Positions 1 through 10,805 of a stretch of DNA of 11,546 nucleotides are shown here, one piece after another. The stretch spans positions 1-11,546 of the forward strand of contig JAQUEG010000009.1 of the NCBI GenBank assembly GCA_028685275.1, written 5' to 3'. The notes under the pieces were generated by a model. The model had not been told where the DNA came from and did not search any database. It saw only the letters and a list, made by a program, of their open reading frames with translations. A program made the position numbers and the translations under genes. Each line of letters opens with the position of its first letter. Position 1 is the stretch's first letter. The stretch is from Bacilli bacterium (GTDB lineage Bacteria; Bacillota_I; Bacilli_A; RF39; UBA660).

Positions 1-1466
1 CCAAAGACGGTTCTAGTTGGTTTGCGGCTCATCCTGATGCTGTTGCTTATTATTTAGATCCAAGAAATTTCCTAAATGAATACAATATTTTAATGTTTGA
101 AGCTTTAGGATATGAAAGTGAATATCAAACTAAAGAAGTAGTGCAAAAAATATTGAATGGAACATTTATGTCAGGAACTTATATTAATGATGGTATAAGC
201 AAATCATATGCTGATACTTTTATGGAAGCAGGCCAAATATCAGGTGCTAGTCCAATTCATTTAGCATCTAGAGTAAGACAAGAACAAGGAACAACCGCTG
301 GTGCTGCAGTTGATGGTAAGTATCATGATTGCATTAGTTATAACGCTAACAATACCAAAACTTTTAAAGGTTCTAGCATTTATAATTTTTTCAATATTGG
401 TGCCTATAGTGGTTCGAACCCTGTATGTAATGGCTTAGCATACGCAGCAAGTGATTCAGGTGATCGGCCTTGGAATAGTATTTATAAATCAATTATTGGC
501 GGTTCTAATTTTATTGCAAATGCTTATATTAATAAAGGCCAAAACACCTTGTATTTACAAAAATTTAATGTTAATCCAAATGCTGACTATTCATTACATA
601 CGCATCAATATATGACCAATATTGAAGCACCACGTTCAGAAGCTTCTATTAGTTATTCAACTTATAATAATTACGGCGTTTTTAATCAAGCTTTAACTTT
701 TGTTATTCCAGTTTTTAATAATATGCCTGATAAAACTGAATTACCTACTTTATTAGGAAACCCTAACAATTATTTGAAAAATATAACTATTAATAATAAA
801 TCACTTACATCTTTTCAACGCACTAAACAAACATATGATATTTATGTAACAGAAATTACTAATAATGTTATTATTGGTGCTAGTAAGATTAGTGATAAAG
901 CTAAAATTATATCTGGAACTGGAACTAAAACATTAAATGATACTAATACTAAAATTGAAATAATCATTGAAGCGGAAAATAAAACAACTAGAACTTATAC
1001 TCTTAACATCATTAAAAGTGATGACGTTCCAATTACAATTAACGAAATATTAGCTAACTTAAATTGGCGTAATCATAATAATTATATTAGTGGAATAAAG
1101 TTAAATACCGAAATCAGTACTATTTTAAATAATATTGACCAATATACGCCAACGATTAATTTTACCATTAAAAATAAAAATGGCGCTCTAAAGCAAAGCG
1201 GGAAAATTAGTACTGGTGATCAAATAATAATTACGATTAATGAAGAATCATTTGCCCAAACTGCTGTTTTATACGGTGACGTTAATGGTGATGGTAAAAT
1301 TACTATTTTAGATTTATTAATTATTCAAAAACAATTACTAGGTTCTAAAAAATTAAATGCTGAATATTTAACCGCATCTGATACAAATAAAGATGGGAAA
1401 GTATCAATTCATGATTTATTAAAAATTCAAAAACATATATTGGGCGCTGCTTTTATTGCGCAATAG
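1..1466 (+). CDS. Dockerin-bearing endo-beta-N-acetylglucosaminidase (GH73-like), 5' partial
   Basis: The gene is cut by the left edge; the frame is open from base 3, so the ATG at 93 is internal. The first codons read SSWFAAHPDAVAYYLDPRNF, typical of secreted glucosaminidase-family autolysins, which cleave the GlcNAc-MurNAc glycan strand of peptidoglycan outside the cell. The likely catalytic Glu lies in ASRVRQEQG (Glu codon 282-284). After the catalytic domain come a cadherin-like beta-sandwich (about 762-1019, PF12733 type), a second beta-rich linker domain (about 1026-1265) and a C-terminal type I dockerin (about 1275-1450). Its two calcium loops, DVNGDGKITILD and DTNKDGKVSIHD, keep Asp/Asn/Asp/Asp at positions 1, 3, 5 and 12, and each is followed by a DLLxIQKxxLG helix. 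No membrane anchor or LPXTG motif is present, so attachment probably relies on the dockerin. The next gene encodes a cohesin and begins 11 bases after the stop codon. The signal peptide and any SH3 domains would lie upstream of the window. Confidence 0.9.
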   Translation, partial: KDGSSWFAAHPDAVAYYLDPRNFLNEYNILMFEALGYESEYQTKEVVQKILNGTFMSGTYINDGISKSYADTFMEAGQISGASPIHLASRVRQEQGTTAGAAVDGKYHDCISYNANNTKTFKGSSIYNFFNIGAYSGSNPVCNGLAYAASDSGDRPWNSIYKSIIGGSNFIANAYINKGQNTLYLQKFNVNPNADYSLHTHQYMTNIEAPRSEASISYSTYNNYGVFNQALTFVIPVFNNMPDKTELPTLLGNPNNYLKNITINNKSLTSFQRTKQTYDIYVTEITNNVIIGASKISDKAKIISGTGTKTLNDTNTKIEIIIEAENKTTRTYTLNIIKSDDVPITINEILANLNWRNHNNYISGIKLNTEISTILNNIDQYTPTINFTIKNKNGALKQSGKISTGDQIIITINEESFAQTAVLYGDVNGDGKITILDLLIIQKQLLGSKKLNAEYLTASDTNKDGKVSIHDLLKIQKHILGAAFIAQ

Positions 1467-1470
1467 GAGG
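1465..1470 (+). promoter_or_regulatory. Ribosome binding site of the cohesin gene
   Basis: AGGAGG overlaps the TAG stop of the dockerin gene and lies six bases before the ATG at 1477. It decides the start: the in-frame ATG at 1456 precedes this site, and the ATG at 1472 is followed at once by an in-frame TGA. The overlap of stop codon and ribosome binding site suggests the two genes are translated from one message. Confidence 0.9.
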
Positions 1471-1476
1471 TATGAA

Positions 1477-2793
1477 ATGAAAAAAACAAATTATTTATTA
1501 TTATTTATTTTTACTGTTTTAATTACTTTTATTTTTAATATAGAAACAGTTAATGCAGTTACTGGGACATTTAGTGTTAAAGCATCAAGTACTAATGTTT
1601 TAATTGGTAATAACGTTAAAATAACTGTTACCGTATCTAGTGCAGCACCAATTGGTGCTTGGGAATTTGTTCTTAATTATGATAGTTCTATATTAAAATT
1701 AATTAGTTCAACGCCAAATACATATATTGTTGATTATGGTGATGGCACAAAAAAATCAGCGTCATATACTTATACTTTTAAAACATTAAAAACTGGGAAA
1801 ACAACAGTTGCAGTTCGTGATGCCGCTATTATTGATTATGATAACGAAACAGAAATGGCAATTACTAAAAAAAGTACTACCGTTACTGTTAGTAAACCAG
1901 TTATTATTGAAAAATCTAGTAATGCGAATTTAAAGGAACTATTACCTTCAAAAGGAACATTATCGCCTTCTTTTGATCCAAATATAACTGAATATGATAT
2001 TAATATTAATGAATTAATTGATAAGTTTATCATTACCGCTAACCCCGAAGATGATAAATCTAGTATAATTGGTGACGGCGAAGTAACTTTAACTGAAGGT
2101 ATTAATGTATTTGAAATAAAAGTAACCGCCGAAGATGGAACAACAAAAACATATACTATTAATACTTATATTATTGACGAAAATCCAATTGAAGTAAATA
2201 TTAATGGTAATAAATATACAATAATTAAAAACACACCATTTACTACTGTCCCTCATAATTATATCCAAACTTCCATCCCAATTAATGGTATTGAAGTTGT
2301 TGCTTATGAAAATAATATCACTAAATTTATTCTTATTGCTTTAAAAAATAAAGATGGCGAAAGCAGTTTGTTCATTTATGATCCAAACCAAGAAAAATAT
2401 ACAAAATATAATGAAATTAATAATGGTATTATGCGTCTTTATCTATCAACACCACCAACTAATATTAAAATACCAAATAATTATAAACCAACTAAAACCA
2501 CTATTAATAATATTGAAATAGAAGGTTGGGTTAACAAACAAGATAATGCTTTTTTATTAGTTTATGCCATGAATGTAACAACCGGTGAATATAATTTATA
2601 CTCTTACGATAAAACTGATGAAGTATTTCAACGATTTAACAATAATAATATTACTATTAAAGATTTATTGCAAAATTATTTACCACTTTTAATTATGACT
2701 GCTATTACTATTGTTATTTTAATTAGTATTGTTGTTATTCAATTATTTACAATAAAAAAAATAAAAAATTCATTAAATAAAAAGAAAGTTTAA
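1477..2793 (+). CDS. Membrane-anchored cohesin-domain surface protein
   Basis: A 438-residue type I membrane protein. Residues 1-27 form a signal peptide (two Lys, then a long hydrophobic core) with a likely cut after VNA. Residues about 29-143 resemble a cohesin: it opens with the strand FSVKASSTNVLIGNNVKITV, then GAWEFVLNYDSSILKL, and ends in a TTVTV strand. Residues 149-233 are a cadherin-like beta-sandwich (PF12733 type, ITEYDI and KTYTINTY signatures), the same module as in the upstream hydrolase. Residues about 240-395 form a beta-rich domain I cannot name. A transmembrane helix at about 401-426 is followed by a basic cytoplasmic tail, KKIKNSLNKKKV. Cohesins bind dockerins tightly, and the gene just upstream encodes a dockerin, so the natural inference is that this protein is the membrane receptor holding the glucosaminidase on the surface. 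The binding itself is not shown by sequence. The start is fixed by AGGAGG at 1465-1470. Confidence 0.85.
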   Translation: MKKTNYLLLFIFTVLITFIFNIETVNAVTGTFSVKASSTNVLIGNNVKITVTVSSAAPIGAWEFVLNYDSSILKLISSTPNTYIVDYGDGTKKSASYTYTFKTLKTGKTTVAVRDAAIIDYDNETEMAITKKSTTVTVSKPVIIEKSSNANLKELLPSKGTLSPSFDPNITEYDININELIDKFIITANPEDDKSSIIGDGEVTLTEGINVFEIKVTAEDGTTKTYTINTYIIDENPIEVNINGNKYTIIKNTPFTTVPHNYIQTSIPINGIEVVAYENNITKFILIALKNKDGESSLFIYDPNQEKYTKYNEINNGIMRLYLSTPPTNIKIPNNYKPTKTTINNIEIEGWVNKQDNAFLLVYAMNVTTGEYNLYSYDKTDEVFQRFNNNNITIKDLLQNYLPLLIMTAITIVILISIVVIQLFTIKKIKNSLNKKKV

Positions 2794-2825
2794 TTTTTAA
2801 CATTAAATGAAAAAATATTTAAAAG

Positions 2826-2859
2826 AAATACCAAAACTTATTGTAAAGGTATTTTTTTT
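2826..2859 (+). terminator. Intrinsic terminator after the cohesin gene
   Basis: AAATACC (2826-2832) pairs with GGTATTT (2848-2854) around a 15-base loop, and the 3' arm runs into eight T residues (2852-2859). It lies about 30 bases after the cohesin stop and would end the dockerin/cohesin message. The loop holds the -35 box of the next gene. Confidence 0.75.
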
Positions 2860-2869
2860 AATATATAAT
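2841..2869 (+). promoter_or_regulatory. Sigma-A-type promoter of the LCP gene
   Basis: TTGTAA (2841-2846) and a perfect TATAAT (2864-2869) are separated by 17 bases. Transcription would start near 2876, giving a leader of about 25 bases before the ATG at 2902. The -35 box lies in the loop of the preceding terminator and the spacer covers its 3' arm and T-tract, so the two signals are interleaved. A weak purine-rich ribosome binding site (AGAAAG, 2883-2888) follows. Confidence 0.7.
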
Positions 2870-2901: not shown

Positions 2902-5043
2902 ATGAAAAAGATATTTCCTTTTATTGCTAAAAATATTTTAAATCCTATAACTATAATAACTGCCTATTCTTTATGTCTTATAGTCACTAGTTATTTAATT
3001 TATTTACTAAGTTTATTGACTGGAATTGAAACTTTATTCCGTGTTATTATTATTATTATTTTAATTCTTCTTTTATTTATATTTCTTTTTATTGGTTTTA
3101 ATATTATAAAAAGAAAAAAGATCGTATTATTTTCAATATATGTTTTAACTATTATTTTATTTATCATAATTGAAGCAGTAATATCTTATAACATTAATAA
3201 AATGTATAATACAATCAATACCATTAGTCAAAAAGAAATTGTTTATACAACAAGTTTAATTACACTAGCTGATAGTAATATCAAAACAATTAATGATATT
3301 AAAAATATTAAAATTGGAATTATAAATGATGAAGATAGTATTGACGGCTACATTATTAGCCAGGAAATAATAGAAGAAAATCAATTAGCGAAAAATAATA
3401 CATACAATAAATATGATAGTTTTATTTTAATGATTAGCGATTTATATGAGAAAAAAGTAGATGCTATATTTGTTCCTGGGAATTATGTATCAATGTTTTC
3501 TGATGACGAACTTTTTCAAAATATAAAAAATGATACTAATATTATTATTACTAAAGAAAAAAGAATAAAAGAACAAGAAAAATACCAAAACACCAAAATA
3601 ACTAAACCATTTACATTACTAATTATGGGAATTGATGATAAGTCAGAAAATATTAATGCAAATGCGAATGGGGATGCTTTAATGTTAATTACTTTTAATC
3701 CGAAAACATTAAATGCTACTATTCTTAGTATTCCTCGTGATACACTAGTACCAATTACTTGTCGCAATAATTATCAAACTAAAATAACTCATGCTAGTTG
3801 GTATGGTGAAAAATGTATGGTTGCTACCATTGAAAAACTAATCGATATTAATATTGACTATTATGTGAAAGTTAACTTTAAAGGTGTTGTTAAATTGGTT
3901 GATGTTCTAGGTGGTATTGAGGTAGATGTGCCAATGAAATTCTGTGAACAAAATAGTGACCGCCAGAGAGGCAACAAAGAAATTTGTTTAGATAAAGGTT
4001 GGCAACGTTTAAACGGCGAAGAAGCTCTAGCACTTTCTCGTAATCGTTATGACGCACCAGGAGGAGATATTGGTCGTGGCTTAAACCAACAATTAGTTTT
4101 AAAAGCAATTTTAAATGAATCTAAAAACATTAATAATATTAACCAGTTTTATGATATTTTAGAAGTGATTGAAAATAATATTGCCACTAACTTCTCTACT
4201 AAACAAATTTTATCTTTATATAATATTGGTAAAGATATAATTAAACATAGCAAAAGCAACAACGAACCGCTTGCTTTTCAACAGTTATTTCTAAAAACAT
4301 ATGGTTTATCGATATATTATCCATCTTCATATCGTGATTTATCAATGCAAGCTTACTATAAAGGTAGTCTTAATGATGTTATTAAAGCCATGAAAATTAA
4401 TCTTGATTTAATTGACCAAGAACCAATAAAAACTTTTACTTATTCAATTAAAGAGCCTTATGAAAAGAAAAAAATTGGGGAAGGACCATATTATGGTGAA
4501 AGTAAAATTCAACTGGTGCCTGATTTTACATCAAAAGATAAAGAATATGCTCTTAACTGGGGCTTGCAACATGATATTAAAATAACATTTGAAACAATCC
4601 AATCTGATGATCCTAATTATACAAATAACCAAATAATCAAACAAAATATGCATTCTAAATCTTTATTATCAAGAATAAATAAAAACGAGGGGATTATTTT
4701 AACAATTGTAGAAAAAGTTGAAACAACTAATCCGAACAAAGTTAATTGTACTTTAACGGAAAATGAAGAAAACCCAGTATGTTTTATGCCAAAATTTATT
4801 AATGAAAAAATAAGTAATGTTGATGATTGGCTAAATTCCATTGTTTATAACTTTATTGTCACAAAAGAAAAAGTAATGACTAATAATGAAGAAGACCATT
4901 TAGTTATCTTTGAACAATCGGTAAATGAAAGTACCAAAGTAAAAGATATGAGCGCTGAATTAATTATTAAGTATTACTTTTATGAAAACAACAAAGAAGA
5001 ACCAGAAGAAGAGCTGGAGGATGAGACTGAAATTAATCCATAA
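2902..5043 (+). CDS. LytR-CpsA-Psr (LCP) family protein with PBP-like and PASTA-like domains
   Basis: 713 residues. Three transmembrane helices (about 12-39, 44-70, 73-97) precede a large extracellular part. Residues about 105-225 resemble half of a periplasmic-binding fold (KIGIINDEDSIDGYIISQE, then KKVDAIFVPGNYVSMFSDD). The LCP domain runs from about 237 to 470 and shows the family hallmarks: LLIMGIDD, the acidic NGDALM (Asp258), LSIPRDT with Arg279 and Asp280, and SRNRYDAPGGDIGRGLNQQ with Arg380, Arg382, Asp389 and Arg392. LCP enzymes transfer undecaprenyl-linked anionic polymers such as teichoic acid to peptidoglycan. Residues about 525-605 match a PASTA repeat (VPDFTSKDKEYALNWGL, then IIKQNMHSKSLL) and 625-695 look like a second. 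An acidic tail ends the protein. Most LCP proteins have one membrane helix and lack the sensor-like and PASTA parts. The gene has its own promoter and is convergent with the ltaS-like operon. The LCP assignment is firm; the polymer substrate is unknown. Confidence 0.9.
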   Translation: MKKIFPFIAKNILNPITIITAYSLCLIVTSYLIYLLSLLTGIETLFRVIIIIILILLLFIFLFIGFNIIKRKKIVLFSIYVLTIILFIIIEAVISYNINKMYNTINTISQKEIVYTTSLITLADSNIKTINDIKNIKIGIINDEDSIDGYIISQEIIEENQLAKNNTYNKYDSFILMISDLYEKKVDAIFVPGNYVSMFSDDELFQNIKNDTNIIITKEKRIKEQEKYQNTKITKPFTLLIMGIDDKSENINANANGDALMLITFNPKTLNATILSIPRDTLVPITCRNNYQTKITHASWYGEKCMVATIEKLIDINIDYYVKVNFKGVVKLVDVLGGIEVDVPMKFCEQNSDRQRGNKEICLDKGWQRLNGEEALALSRNRYDAPGGDIGRGLNQQLVLKAILNESKNINNINQFYDILEVIENNIATNFSTKQILSLYNIGKDIIKHSKSNNEPLAFQQLFLKTYGLSIYYPSSYRDLSMQAYYKGSLNDVIKAMKINLDLIDQEPIKTFTYSIKEPYEKKKIGEGPYYGESKIQLVPDFTSKDKEYALNWGLQHDIKITFETIQSDDPNYTNNQIIKQNMHSKSLLSRINKNEGIILTIVEKVETTNPNKVNCTLTENEENPVCFMPKFINEKISNVDDWLNSIVYNFIVTKEKVMTNNEEDHLVIFEQSVNESTKVKDMSAELIIKYYFYENNKEEPEEELEDETEINP

Positions 5044-8750: not shown

Positions 8751-10805
8751 CTATTTACTATCCTGTTTTTTTATTTCTTTATTAGTAAGCATTTCTAATA
8801 CCGCTTCATTTATTGCATCATCAATTAGTTTAATATCATCCATAATCATACTATAACCAATAGCAACACCCCGATCATAAGGAAGGTCTTTAAACATACG
8901 TTCTAACTTCCGTATATAATCAATAACTTGATTTTCATCATAACCAACCATATAAATTAAAAATTCATTACCATCGGTTCGAATAATATCAGTATTTTCT
9001 ATTTGACTATTAATTAATATATTAGCAGCTGCTTTTATTAAACGGTCACCTTCATCATGACCATAATTATCATTTATTTCCTTTAAATTGTTTAAATCAA
9101 TAATAATTACCGTTTGTGGATATACTTTATTATCTTCCCAATTTTCAATATTATTATTTAAATAATATCTATTTTTTAATGACGTAAGTGGATCAATATG
9201 TTTAACAGCACTATACTTTTTAGTAGCACGCATTTTTTTCCTTTTTGATACTATAATTCCCATAATAATAATTAAAATTGGTATTAAAACAATATATAAC
9301 CATAAAAATGATAAATTAATAATATTATAATTTAATAATAAATTATTAATTCCTGTTAATACATATTGATTATGATTAATATTATTTAAATAAAATTGAT
9401 ATAAATCATAAAATAATTTATTTTCATTATTATTAACTAAATAATTATAATTAAAATCAATTGTATCTTGATATATAATATTATATTTTTTCAATTGACG
9501 ATTTTTATGATATTGATACGTATTATAATCAATTACCAACAAATTTTCGTTTTCATTTTTCAGTTTACTAATACTTTCATATGTATGGAAATTAGCATCA
9601 ATATTTATATTAATATAATTTAATAATTTCGTTCCCTTTATCATATTGATATCTTTATTATTTAACCCTTGAAACGAATCAATTACTATATCATTGCGAA
9701 TATGAGCAAGTACTAAATAATCACTATTAATTGGTGAGATCGTACTATAAATATTGTTTCCTAATTTAGAAAAATTATAGTAATTAAAAACAAGATCAAC
9801 TTTATTATTGCGAATAGCTTCTTGTAAATCATTAACATTATTATATTTTTGATAAATAAATTCGATTTCAGCAAAATTAGCAAAGCCATCAATAAAAACT
9901 TGATTAATACCTGTTAATTCCCCATAAGAATATAAGTCATATGGAATATTCTCAATATAACCATAAGTATATCTTTTGCCCCGAAAGGATGCTTTTGCTT
10001 CTTCATTTATATTATTAATATCGCAATATATATTAAACATTTCTTCATTATAATTTTTATCTAAATGATTATTACGCCAAAAATGATAATATTTATTTAT
10101 AATTGAACTAAAACGATTTTGTTTTTCATCTATTGATAATACATATTTATCTGCTAAATCATTAAACATGTAAACTACATGATATTTATTTTTTATAATT
10201 TCATCTAAATATGCATTTCTCGCTAAAATAATATAATTAACTTCTCCATTATTAAAAGTTGTAATCAGTTGTTCAATCGATTCAGCCATAATATAAGTTA
10301 AATTATACTTTTTTAAATAATTCTTTATTATATTATGGTTATTAGTTAAAACTCCAATTGTTTTGTTATTTAAACTATCTAAATCATTAATCTTTAAATT
10401 TTTATTACTTAATATTACATAATTATCTTCATAAAAAGTAAAATCATTTTCTTTTATTTTTTGATTATTTTTAACAATTTTAAAAGCATTAGTAGTTTCT
10501 GGCGCCTGGTTATTAATATTATAAGAAATCATATTGAAATCTAATTCGGTTTCTAATATGAAATCATTTAAAAATGAAAAGAAAATACCAGTTCCTTCTT
10601 TGCCAAAAATTGGTAAATTATTAGGAATGGCAATATCTATCATCTTGTTTTTATTATCTTCCAACCACCTTTTTTCAAATAAACTAAGATTCAATATCCC
10701 TTTATTTTGGTCTAAATTAAAAGTCCGGTATGCATAAACACTAATTACAATAATAACCGCAAACATTATAAATATTATTTTTTTACTTCTTTTTTTTGCT
10801 TTCAT
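8751..10805 (-). CDS. Membrane GGDEF-domain protein with two periplasmic-binding-like sensor domains
   Basis: 684 residues. A transmembrane helix at about 8-26 leads to an extracellular part with two PBP (SBP_bac_3-like) units, about 35-265 (KTIGVLTNN, GEVNYIILARNAYLDE) and about 270-490 (RYTYGYIENIPYDLYSYG, NKVDLVFNYYNFS). A second helix (498-520) is followed by a cytoplasmic GGDEF domain from DPLTSLKNR (Asp538). GGDEF enzymes join two GTP into cyclic di-GMP. The first metal Asp (Asp570 in IIDLNN), Asn578 and the GHDEGD Asp587 are kept. The signature, however, reads RTDGNEF (609-615) instead of RxGGDEF: the first Gly is Asp and the metal-binding third residue is Asn613. The inhibitory RxxD site is ENTD. 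The domain may therefore be inactive, weakly active, or a GTP or nucleotide sensor. No EAL or HD-GYP domain is present. The start is supported by AAGGTGG (10813-10819) seven bases upstream, overlapping the stop of the preceding gene. Confidence 0.88.
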   Translation of the reverse strand: MKAKKRSKKIIFIMFAVIIVISVYAYRTFNLDQNKGILNLSLFEKRWLEDNKNKMIDIAIPNNLPIFGKEGTGIFFSFLNDFILETELDFNMISYNINNQAPETTNAFKIVKNNQKIKENDFTFYEDNYVILSNKNLKINDLDSLNNKTIGVLTNNHNIIKNYLKKYNLTYIMAESIEQLITTFNNGEVNYIILARNAYLDEIIKNKYHVVYMFNDLADKYVLSIDEKQNRFSSIINKYYHFWRNNHLDKNYNEEMFNIYCDINNINEEAKASFRGKRYTYGYIENIPYDLYSYGELTGINQVFIDGFANFAEIEFIYQKYNNVNDLQEAIRNNKVDLVFNYYNFSKLGNNIYSTISPINSDYLVLAHIRNDIVIDSFQGLNNKDINMIKGTKLLNYININIDANFHTYESISKLKNENENLLVIDYNTYQYHKNRQLKKYNIIYQDTIDFNYNYLVNNNENKLFYDLYQFYLNNINHNQYVLTGINNLLLNYNIINLSFLWLYIVLIPILIIIMGIIVSKRKKMRATKKYSAVKHIDPLTSLKNRYYLNNNIENWEDNKVYPQTVIIIDLNNLKEINDNYGHDEGDRLIKAAANILINSQIENTDIIRTDGNEFLIYMVGYDENQVIDYIRKLERMFKDLPYDRGVAIGYSMIMDDIKLIDDAINEAVLEMLTNKEIKKQDSK

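What the first reader, a model, noticed from the sequence alone, without database searches (positions are those of the whole stretch)
1..2793. Dockerin-tagged autolysin next to its probable membrane cohesin receptor
Two adjacent genes, sharing a stop codon/ribosome binding site overlap, encode a GH73-like peptidoglycan hydrolase with an intact type I dockerin and a signal-peptide/cohesin/transmembrane protein. Both also carry the same cadherin-like domain. Cohesin-dockerin pairs are best known from cellulosomes that degrade plant polysaccharides. Here no polysaccharide-degrading enzyme is visible, and the pair seems to be a minimal one-to-one device for holding a cell-wall hydrolase at the membrane instead of using LPXTG, LysM or choline-binding anchors. 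The dockerin recognition positions 10/11 are Ile-Leu and Ile-His instead of the Ser/Thr common in clostridial cellulosomes, suggesting private specificity.
Basis: partly seen in the sequence, partly recalled or inferred. Interest (0 to 1): 0.72.

Follow-up and report, generated by a model that had tools for sequence, protein, structure and literature searches.

The report
Autolysin docked to its private membrane receptor
Many uncultured gut bacteria encode a wall-cutting enzyme directly beside a membrane protein whose outer domain appears to hold that enzyme through a cohesin-dockerin lock, and lock and key change together from species to species, which suggests what dockerins do in bacteria that do not digest plant fibre.

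Summary
ORF1 (3-1466, 5' end cut by the contig end) is an AtlA-type GH73 enzyme with a C-terminal type I dockerin. ORF2 (1477-2793) is signal peptide - cohesin - cadherin-like - beta region - one transmembrane helix. AlphaFold2 gives ORF2 residues 27-143 a cohesin fold. The genome (82% complete) holds one cohesin, one dockerin and no sortase match. The pair is not local: 148 of 152 distinct GH73-dockerin genes in fetched loci have this receptor gene next door, and at least 86 of 94 full-length receptor genes have a dockerin just upstream. The dockerin co-varies with the neighbour's cohesin domain (r 0.56) more than with its own enzyme domain (0.21). The excess coupling falls on the recognition positions of both repeats and largely spares the calcium ligands. 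The receptor domain predicts dockerin type in 106 of 113 typed pairs. Some receptor types escape the Pfam cohesin model; 28 of 85 paired genomes have no Pfam cohesin match. Best reading: a dedicated calcium-dependent lock tethering one hydrolase to the membrane. Binding and physiology are inferred, not shown. I call it a new variant of a known kind.

The parts
3..1466 (+). ORF1: secreted GH73-type peptidoglycan hydrolase with C-terminal dockerin; 5' end cut by the contig end (about 200 residues missing by comparison with the 688-aa relative in L150)
189..683 (+). AtlA-type glucosaminidase (GH73) domain, residues 63-227; Glu94 aligns with the Glu of LLETG in AtlA and is invariant in the 26 aligned enzymes (its catalytic role is recalled)
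   Evidence: (6fxo, E 1.2e-14)
759..1040 (+). cadherin-like domain of the enzyme, residues 253-346
   Evidence: matches receptor cadherin-like regions of relatives; PF12733 in relatives' enzymes
1272..1442 (+). type I dockerin, two intact calcium loops with near-symmetric recognition helices
   Evidence: (62.2 bits)
1465..1470 (+). AGGAGG ribosome-binding site of ORF2, overlapping the stop codon of ORF1
   Evidence: sequence
1477..2793 (+). ORF2: membrane receptor, signal peptide - cohesin - cadherin-like - beta region - transmembrane helix - short basic tail
1558..1905 (+). cohesin domain of the receptor, residues 28-143
1957..2163 (+). cadherin-like domain of the receptor, residues 161-229
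   Evidence: PF12733 33.5 bits
2176..2634 (+). conserved membrane-proximal beta region, residues about 234-386 (reads like two similar units, by eye)
2656..2790 (+). transmembrane helix (394 to about 420) and basic cytoplasmic tail
   Evidence: helix 394-437; hydropathy in the set of pairs
2815..2866 (+). terminator-like hairpin with a U run between ORF2 and the next gene, suggesting a two-gene transcript
   Evidence: z -3.1, 2 of 200 shuffles fold as well; the consensus terminator scan found none

Best explanation
This is a dedicated two-gene tether. The secreted GH73 hydrolase has no membrane or sortase anchor of its own; its C-terminal dockerin binds, with calcium, the cohesin domain of the single-pass membrane protein made from the next gene. 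The hydrolase is thereby held at the outer face of the membrane, at the base of the wall, where it can trim or release newly made glycan strands without escaping. The two partners diversify together, so lineages have their own matched lock and key; the same receptor frame is sometimes paired with a secreted peptidase instead. Shown by computation: domains, fold, gene pairing, and covariation focused on the recognition positions. Inferred: physical binding, calcium dependence, position at the membrane, and the physiological role.
For: Cohesin fold. Pairing counted from both sides: 148 of 152 GH73-dockerin genes; 86 of 94 receptor genes, the 8 others being one contig edge and 7 that were fetched and looked at. 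Distance correlations over 147 pairs: dockerin-cohesin 0.56, dockerin-enzyme 0.21, dockerin-receptor tail 0.19; partial Mantel r 0.51, 0 of 999 shuffles reach it; it holds within the canonical cohesin cluster, n 94, r 0.45, and within one dockerin type, n 60, r 0.31. Of 63 dockerin columns the 13 with the largest excess coupling to the cohesin domain are positions 10, 13, 14, 17, 18, 21 of both repeats and 11 of repeat 2; ligand positions 1, 3, 5, 12 show 0.25 or less. Dockerin type predicted from the neighbour's cohesin domain 106 of 113, from GH73 86, from receptor tail 82; with GH73 relatives excluded 96, 39, 53. Five receptors not used for the type models score best with the model of their partner's type (partner typed by eye): 3 of 3 in reversed gene order, 2 of 2 others. 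Anchor logic: 143 of 147 receptors have a membrane-like segment at or after the tail, and the other four are cut at contig ends; 1 of 147 enzymes has one after the GH73 start; no LPxT[GAN] in the last 60 residues of the enzymes or the last 80 of the receptors; no sortase match in the window's genome.
Against: No binding data and no model of the complex. One receptor (G066, L224) sits beside a GH73 enzyme that has no dockerin. Seven Lachnospiraceae-type loci of the 160 distinct ones lack a dockerin in the frame of the enzyme yet keep a cohesin-like neighbour; an eighth, L128, has neither. In L127 a dockerin lies in another frame. Two GH73-dockerin genes with enough sequence downstream lack the receptor (L130, L139). 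Of 85 paired genomes 35 do not have exactly one dockerin match, so the relation is not always one to one. The sign test on supported branches is underpowered: for DY against the rest 4 of 5 pairs concordant on the GH73 tree (p 0.125) and about 5 of 5 on the tail tree (p 0.06); for canonical against the rest 3 of 7 and 3.5 of 9 concordant on average, the remainder showing no difference in the receptor; no pair went the opposite way. Loop position 9 of repeat 1, also a ligand position, shows some excess coupling, 0.94. The enzyme's SH3 domain may itself bind the wall.
Confidence: 0.78

Rival explanations
1. The pair is a regulator complex: the receptor switches the hydrolase on or off or sets glycan length, as SpdC does for SagB in S. 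aureus, and tethering is secondary.
For: A GH73 enzyme acting with an integral membrane partner is known: SagB-SpdC (passages of PMC12272431; that SagB is of GH73 is recalled). The receptor has a conserved membrane-proximal region beyond the cohesin.
Against: SpdC is an integral membrane protein of the CAAX protease family; this receptor's model has one membrane helix and Pfam lists no CAAX-protease match in it. Reuse of the receptor with unrelated peptidases suits a general tether better.
Confidence: 0.3
2. A minimal cellulosome-like surface complex: the cohesin protein is one piece of a larger set with further dockerin enzymes missing from the incomplete genome.
For: The genome is 82% complete. 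45 of 108 dockerin-bearing genomes of the family have two or more matches.
Against: Of 85 paired genomes 50 have exactly one dockerin. In the stretches of multi-dockerin genomes looked at, many extra matches are internal, asymmetric EF-hand repeats, and some belong to further pairs with their own receptor. The 27 aligned receptors show one cohesin-position domain each.
Confidence: 0.08
3. The covariation is only shared ancestry: both genes travel together, so their differences track each other without binding.
For: The pair is adjacent and co-inherited; the tree-based sign test alone is not significant.
Against: Two other domains of the same two genes serve as controls and track the dockerin far less (0.21 and 0.19 against 0.56). 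Coupling concentrates on the recognition positions and largely spares the calcium ligands. Prediction survives removal of GH73 relatives (96 of 113), less well removal of tail relatives (77 of 113, majority 60).
Confidence: 0.07
4. The enzyme is a weapon against other bacteria held on the surface, not a hydrolase of the cell's own wall.
For: Dockerin-bearing wall hydrolases in cellulosomes led to the idea of a lyticome (passage of PMC6403190).
Against: A single-pass tether on a stalk of a few beta domains would keep the enzyme inside or just above the cell's own wall (inference). Pfam names no secretion-system or immunity gene among the window's other proteins, but the upstream side is off the contig.
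Confidence: 0.1

Closest known systems
Cohesin-dockerin pairs of cellulosomes (type I)
   Same: Dockerin fold class, dual symmetric calcium loops, cohesin fold; recognition positions 10, 11, 17, 18 carry the specificity (recalled; the positions are also named in a passage of PMC4081043)
   Different: One cohesin, one enzyme, neighbouring genes, membrane helix instead of SLH or sortase anchor, peptidoglycan hydrolase instead of plant-fibre enzyme
Clostridium perfringens cohesin-like modules of GH84C and GH33 (2jh2, 2w1n, 2vo8)
   Same: Nearest solved folds to the receptor domain; also outside classical cellulosomes (recalled)
   Different: There the cohesin sits on glycoside hydrolases themselves (descriptions); here it sits on a membrane-anchored protein without an enzyme domain
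C. thermocellum single-cohesin surface proteins OlpA and OlpC (3ul4, 4dh2)
   Same: Cohesins solved with type I dockerins (PDB titles); single-cohesin cell-surface proteins (recalled)
   Different: Anchored by SLH modules (recalled) and part of a large cellulosome set
S. aureus SagB-SpdC
   Same: A glucosaminidase working with an integral membrane partner on nascent peptidoglycan (passages of PMC12272431)
   Different: SpdC is of the CAAX protease family; no cohesin or dockerin (recalled)
Dockerin-bearing GH73 of Ruminococcus albus and lysozyme of the R. champanellensis cellulosome
   Same: A dockerin on, or a cellulosome place for, a wall hydrolase (table row in PMC4081043 read from flattened columns; passage in PMC6403190)
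   Different: Members of large dockerin sets; no dedicated neighbouring membrane receptor is mentioned in the passages I saw

Membership tests
Type I dockerin | Pfam Dockerin_1 above its curated cut-off, full length | tested here: met
   58.5 bits against 22.9, model 1-57 of 57
Type I dockerin | Two calcium loops with intact ligands and a symmetric recognition helix | tested here: met
   D1 N3 D5 T/S9 D12 in both repeats of the window; over 147 dockerins the two repeats agree at 92% of seven recognition positions, against 34% between proteins
Type I dockerin | Calcium-dependent binding to a cohesin | not testable with these tools
   needs protein
Cohesin | Pfam Cohesin above its curated cut-off | tested here: met
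   25.5 bits against 24.1; 28.7 in the genome search
Cohesin | Cohesin fold | tested here: met
Cohesin (DY-type receptors of relatives, model of L073) | Cohesin fold | tested here: inconclusive
GH73 glucosaminidase | Sequence relation to a solved enzyme of the family with the Glu conserved | tested here: met
   6fxo E 1.2e-14, Glu aligned, invariant in the 26 aligned; that AtlA is of GH73 is recalled
GH73 glucosaminidase | Pfam PF01832 match | tested here: not met
   not listed for ORF1 at E up to 1; so AtlA-type by pairwise similarity, not by that Pfam model
GH73 glucosaminidase | Glucosaminidase activity | not testable with these tools
   needs protein
Cellulosome | Scaffoldin with several cohesins or several dockerin enzymes | tested here: not met
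   one PF00963 and one PF00404 match in the genome; genome 82% complete
Cellulosome | Sortase anchoring of the scaffoldin (one of the known anchor types) | tested here: not met
   no PF04203 match in the genome, no LPxT[GAN] near the end of 147 receptors
Cellulosome | SLH anchoring of the scaffoldin (the other known type) | not tested
   no SLH match in ORF2, but the genome was not searched for SLH
SagB-SpdC complex | Partner is a CAAX-protease-family integral membrane protein | tested here: not met
   no such Pfam match in ORF2; one membrane helix in the model

The most novel reading that the evidence does not exclude
A whole class of private dockerin-receptor locks: single-pass membrane receptors whose outer domain has diversified from canonical cohesin into several types, some perhaps no longer cohesins but short Ig-like domains, each matched to its own dockerin type, so that different pairs can work side by side in one cell (G071 carries two types) and tether autolysins or peptidases at the membrane of uncultured gut Bacillota. 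This would supply missing partners for dockerins in bacteria that do not degrade fibre, whose receptors the Pfam cohesin model often does not see.
Probability: 0.5. Interest if true: 0.8.

Novelty: new variant of a known kind. Interest (0 to 1): 0.68.

Why it matters
PMC4081043 (passage) states as open what dockerins do in non-cellulolytic microbes that carry few or no cohesins. Here the likely partner is the next gene, and in 28 of 85 paired genomes no Pfam cohesin match was found at all, so such genomes would be counted as dockerin-only. It makes the question directly testable, offers a way of holding a wall hydrolase at the membrane without sortase, LysM or choline binding in small-genome gut bacteria, and supplies 147 natural candidate lock-and-key pairs for learning a cohesin-dockerin code.

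Tried and rejected
Rejected: cellulosome fragment. Rejected as the main account: shared ancestry alone. Gave little: the tree-based sign test (never opposed, but too few supported switches); Pfam for the enzyme domain of ORF1; phmmer of ORF2 against PDB (1aoh only at E 0.23; a PHIST hit at 0.015 not pursued); the consensus terminator scan; Rfam at gathering thresholds (no match). The DY-type receptor model did not settle whether that domain is a cohesin. A cohesin-dockerin complex could not be modelled: the structure tool takes single chains of native sequence, and I did not build a fused chain.

Caveats on the numbers. In one search a neighbour counted if its frame lay within about 500 nt on the same strand; 175 GH73 frames were merged to 160 by shared 5-letter words (over 80%). 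One of 148 pairs was dropped for lack of a tail hit. The 94 full-length receptors are rows I picked by coverage from the printed, capped list; the dockerin list there is the printed part (down to about 1e-7) with some rows left out by me, so 86 of 94 is a lower bound: L225 and L226 turned out paired. Dockerin types were defined by patterns made after seeing the alignments; 34 of 147 fell in no type and were left out of the 113. (Mantel) and 101 do not use types. One search mixed weighted observed with unweighted shuffled values; one search repeats it with equal treatment and is the one to trust. The 221 of 288 genomes have any match at that E-value, not only full-length ones. The numbering of dockerin positions and the names of cohesin faces are recalled. 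Literature: the searches listed no paper whose title or listed abstract start describes such a pair; of the papers I saw passages only; only open-licence full texts are held, and Peer et al. 2009 was not held.
Full report
What is there. The window is the whole contig C51 of a 0.87 Mb, 82% complete genome. ORF1 (3-1466) lacks its 5' end. It carries an AtlA-type glucosaminidase domain (6fxo, E 1.2e-14), a cadherin-like domain recognisable by homology and a type I dockerin with both calcium loops intact (58.5 bits). ORF2 (1477-2793) starts 10 nt after the ORF1 stop, with AGGAGG overlapping that stop. It reads signal peptide, cohesin (25.5 bits, cut-off 24.1), cadherin-like (33.5 bits), further beta structure, one long C-terminal helix. 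A hairpin with a U run follows, then an LCP ligase on the same strand, and LtaS, BrkB and GGDEF proteins on the other. The full-length enzyme of the closest fetched relative (L150, 688 aa) adds an SH3_3-like segment (21.1 bits, below cut-off) behind a signal-like start.

One to one in this genome. One PF00963 match, one PF00404 match, one GH73-dockerin gene (its other match is the receptor's own cadherin-like region), no sortase match. With 18% of the genome unseen this is strong but not final.

The pair is widespread. In 145 genomes of the same family, PF00404 matches 108 and PF00963 only 72. A profile of the receptor found 94 full-length receptor genes in 92 genomes; at least 86 have a dockerin less than 400 nt upstream. 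The 8 others: G033 is cut at a contig edge; G099 and G110 are in fact paired (G110 with a PF01832 glucosaminidase); in G015, G141 and G071 the receptor comes first and a dockerin protein follows, an M6 peptidase by Pfam in G015 and G141, while in the G071 protein Pfam calls GLUG and dockerin but no M6 domain; in G042 the following frame is cut; in G066 the enzyme lacks a dockerin. In the order, 221 of 288 genomes in 76 of 103 genera have a match to the receptor profile at E 1e-30 or better. Going the other way, of 160 distinct GH73 genes in fetched loci 152 have a dockerin, and 148 of these have the receptor next downstream; two of the four without run off the contig. The pair also stands in contigs titled Lachnospiraceae, Roseburia, Eubacterium and others, besides many titled Bacilli, Bacillales, Tenericutes or Erysipelotrichaceae. 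I take the window's organism for an uncultured small-genome gut Bacillota of the RF39 kind, but no tool named it.

Who binds whom. Over 147 pairs, sequence distances of the dockerin follow those of the neighbour's cohesin domain (r 0.56) much more than those of its own GH73 domain (0.21) or of the receptor's tail (0.19). Partial Mantel r is 0.51 with both controls, 0 of 999 shuffles reaching it. The effect holds within the canonical cohesin cluster (n 94, r 0.45) and within one dockerin type (n 60, r 0.31), while dockerin against tail vanishes (-0.03) and dockerin against GH73 falls to 0.10 (19 of 999 shuffles reach it). Column by column, the dockerin positions that couple more to the cohesin domain than to either control are, in order, 13, 18, 14, 17, 17, 13, 14, 10, 10, 18, 21, 21, 11, that is nearly the same positions in both repeats; ligand positions 1, 3, 5 and 12 show 0.25 or less, and position 9 of repeat 1 shows 0.94. 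The receptor columns most coupled in the earlier, cruder version lie mostly at 55-64, 72-95 and 115-130 of the window protein, with 32 and one gap column besides; these stretches hold or border strands 59-67, 83-87, 94-103 and 107-120 of the model. That such strands make the dockerin-binding face is recalled. The two repeats of a dockerin agree at 92% of seven recognition positions, against 34% between proteins, the mark of a symmetric, dual-mode binder.

Types. Dockerins fall into QK 60, DY 22, LR 11, RQ 11, QR 9 and 34 untyped. Clustering receptor domains into eight groups puts 20 of 22 DY pairs alone in one group, 6 LR pairs alone in another, 7 RQ pairs with one LR in a third, and 9 QR pairs with 6 untyped and one LR in a fourth; the largest group holds all 60 QK plus 26 untyped, 4 RQ, 3 LR and 1 DY; three groups are single pairs. 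The nearest receptor domain predicts the dockerin type in 106 of 113, against 86 by GH73 and 82 by tail (majority 60). With neighbours close in GH73 excluded (nearest quarter of distances) it is 96, 39 and 53; with neighbours close in the tail excluded (nearer half), 77, 25 and 44. Five receptors not used for the type models score best with the model of their partner's type, typed by eye, including three in reversed gene order. Dockerin type changes at least 40 times on the GH73 tree, 43 on the tail tree and 24 on the cohesin-domain tree; on supported branches no matched switch goes the opposite way, but several show no difference in the receptor and the pairs are too few for significance.

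Not all receptor domains are plain cohesins. The DY-type domain is some ten residues shorter (alignment, models), and Pfam listed no cohesin in the DY example scanned, L065, nor in three receptors of other non-QK kinds. The AlphaFold model of a DY receptor is Ig-like, and cohesins tie there with unrelated folds. Of 85 paired genomes 28 have no Pfam cohesin match.

Anchor. By a simple hydropathy rule all 147 receptors have a hydrophobic segment near the start and 143 a membrane-like one at or after the tail; the other four stop at contig ends. One of 147 enzymes has a membrane-like segment after the GH73 start. LPxT[GAN] was found in none, looking at the last 60 residues of enzymes and 80 of receptors.

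Reading. The simplest account is a calcium-dependent tether of one hydrolase to its neighbour receptor at the membrane. It works like a cohesin-dockerin pair and is one by domain and fold; it is not a cellulosome. In setting it resembles SagB-SpdC, a glucosaminidase working with a membrane protein (PMC12272431). What is new is the dedicated, gene-paired, membrane-anchored form, its spread, and the co-diversified types. I found no description of it in the searches named under Tried and rejected.

Noticed in passing
L227 3092-7214, L228 802-5227, L230 489-4630: Second form of the device with reversed gene order: short receptor first, then a dockerin protein (M6 peptidase with GLUG motif in L227 and L228; in L230 GLUG and dockerin but no M6 call), all with a DY-type dockerin.
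   Followed up: partly
L176 1-3998; L241 2-4845: Receptor-like gene beside a papain-like (Peptidase_C1) dockerin protein: the tether also seems to serve proteases.
   Followed up: partly
L112, L114, L121, L133, L134, L141: Lachnospiraceae-type GH73 genes without a dockerin hit, still followed by a cohesin-like receptor gene; unexplained, and against strict pairing.
   Followed up: partly
L127 5062-9397 (Roseburia inulinivorans DSM 16841): The pair in a cultured species, but the dockerin lies in another frame than the enzyme; frame break or assembly error not resolved.
   Followed up: no
window 2902-5043; L150 10995-11999: LCP-family ligase with an extra periplasmic-binding-like stretch (weak NMT1 and phosphonate-binding matches, below cut-off) between its membrane part and the LCP domain; a similar stretch is seen by eye in the relative L150.
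   Followed up: no
window 8751-10805: Membrane GGDEF protein whose N-terminal part reads, by eye, like two solute-binding domains in a row (no Pfam match there), in a sub-megabase genome.
   Followed up: no
L231-L238, L242: Extra dockerin matches in multi-dockerin relatives are often internal, asymmetric EF-hand repeats unlike the binding dockerins; some stand in tandem (three near-identical copies in L238).
   Followed up: partly
L006, L008, L010, L011 (G130, G134, G083, G017): Cohesin matches inside open frames of about 2,900-3,100 aa in the same family; in G130 and G083 a dockerin match lies in the same frame.
   Followed up: no
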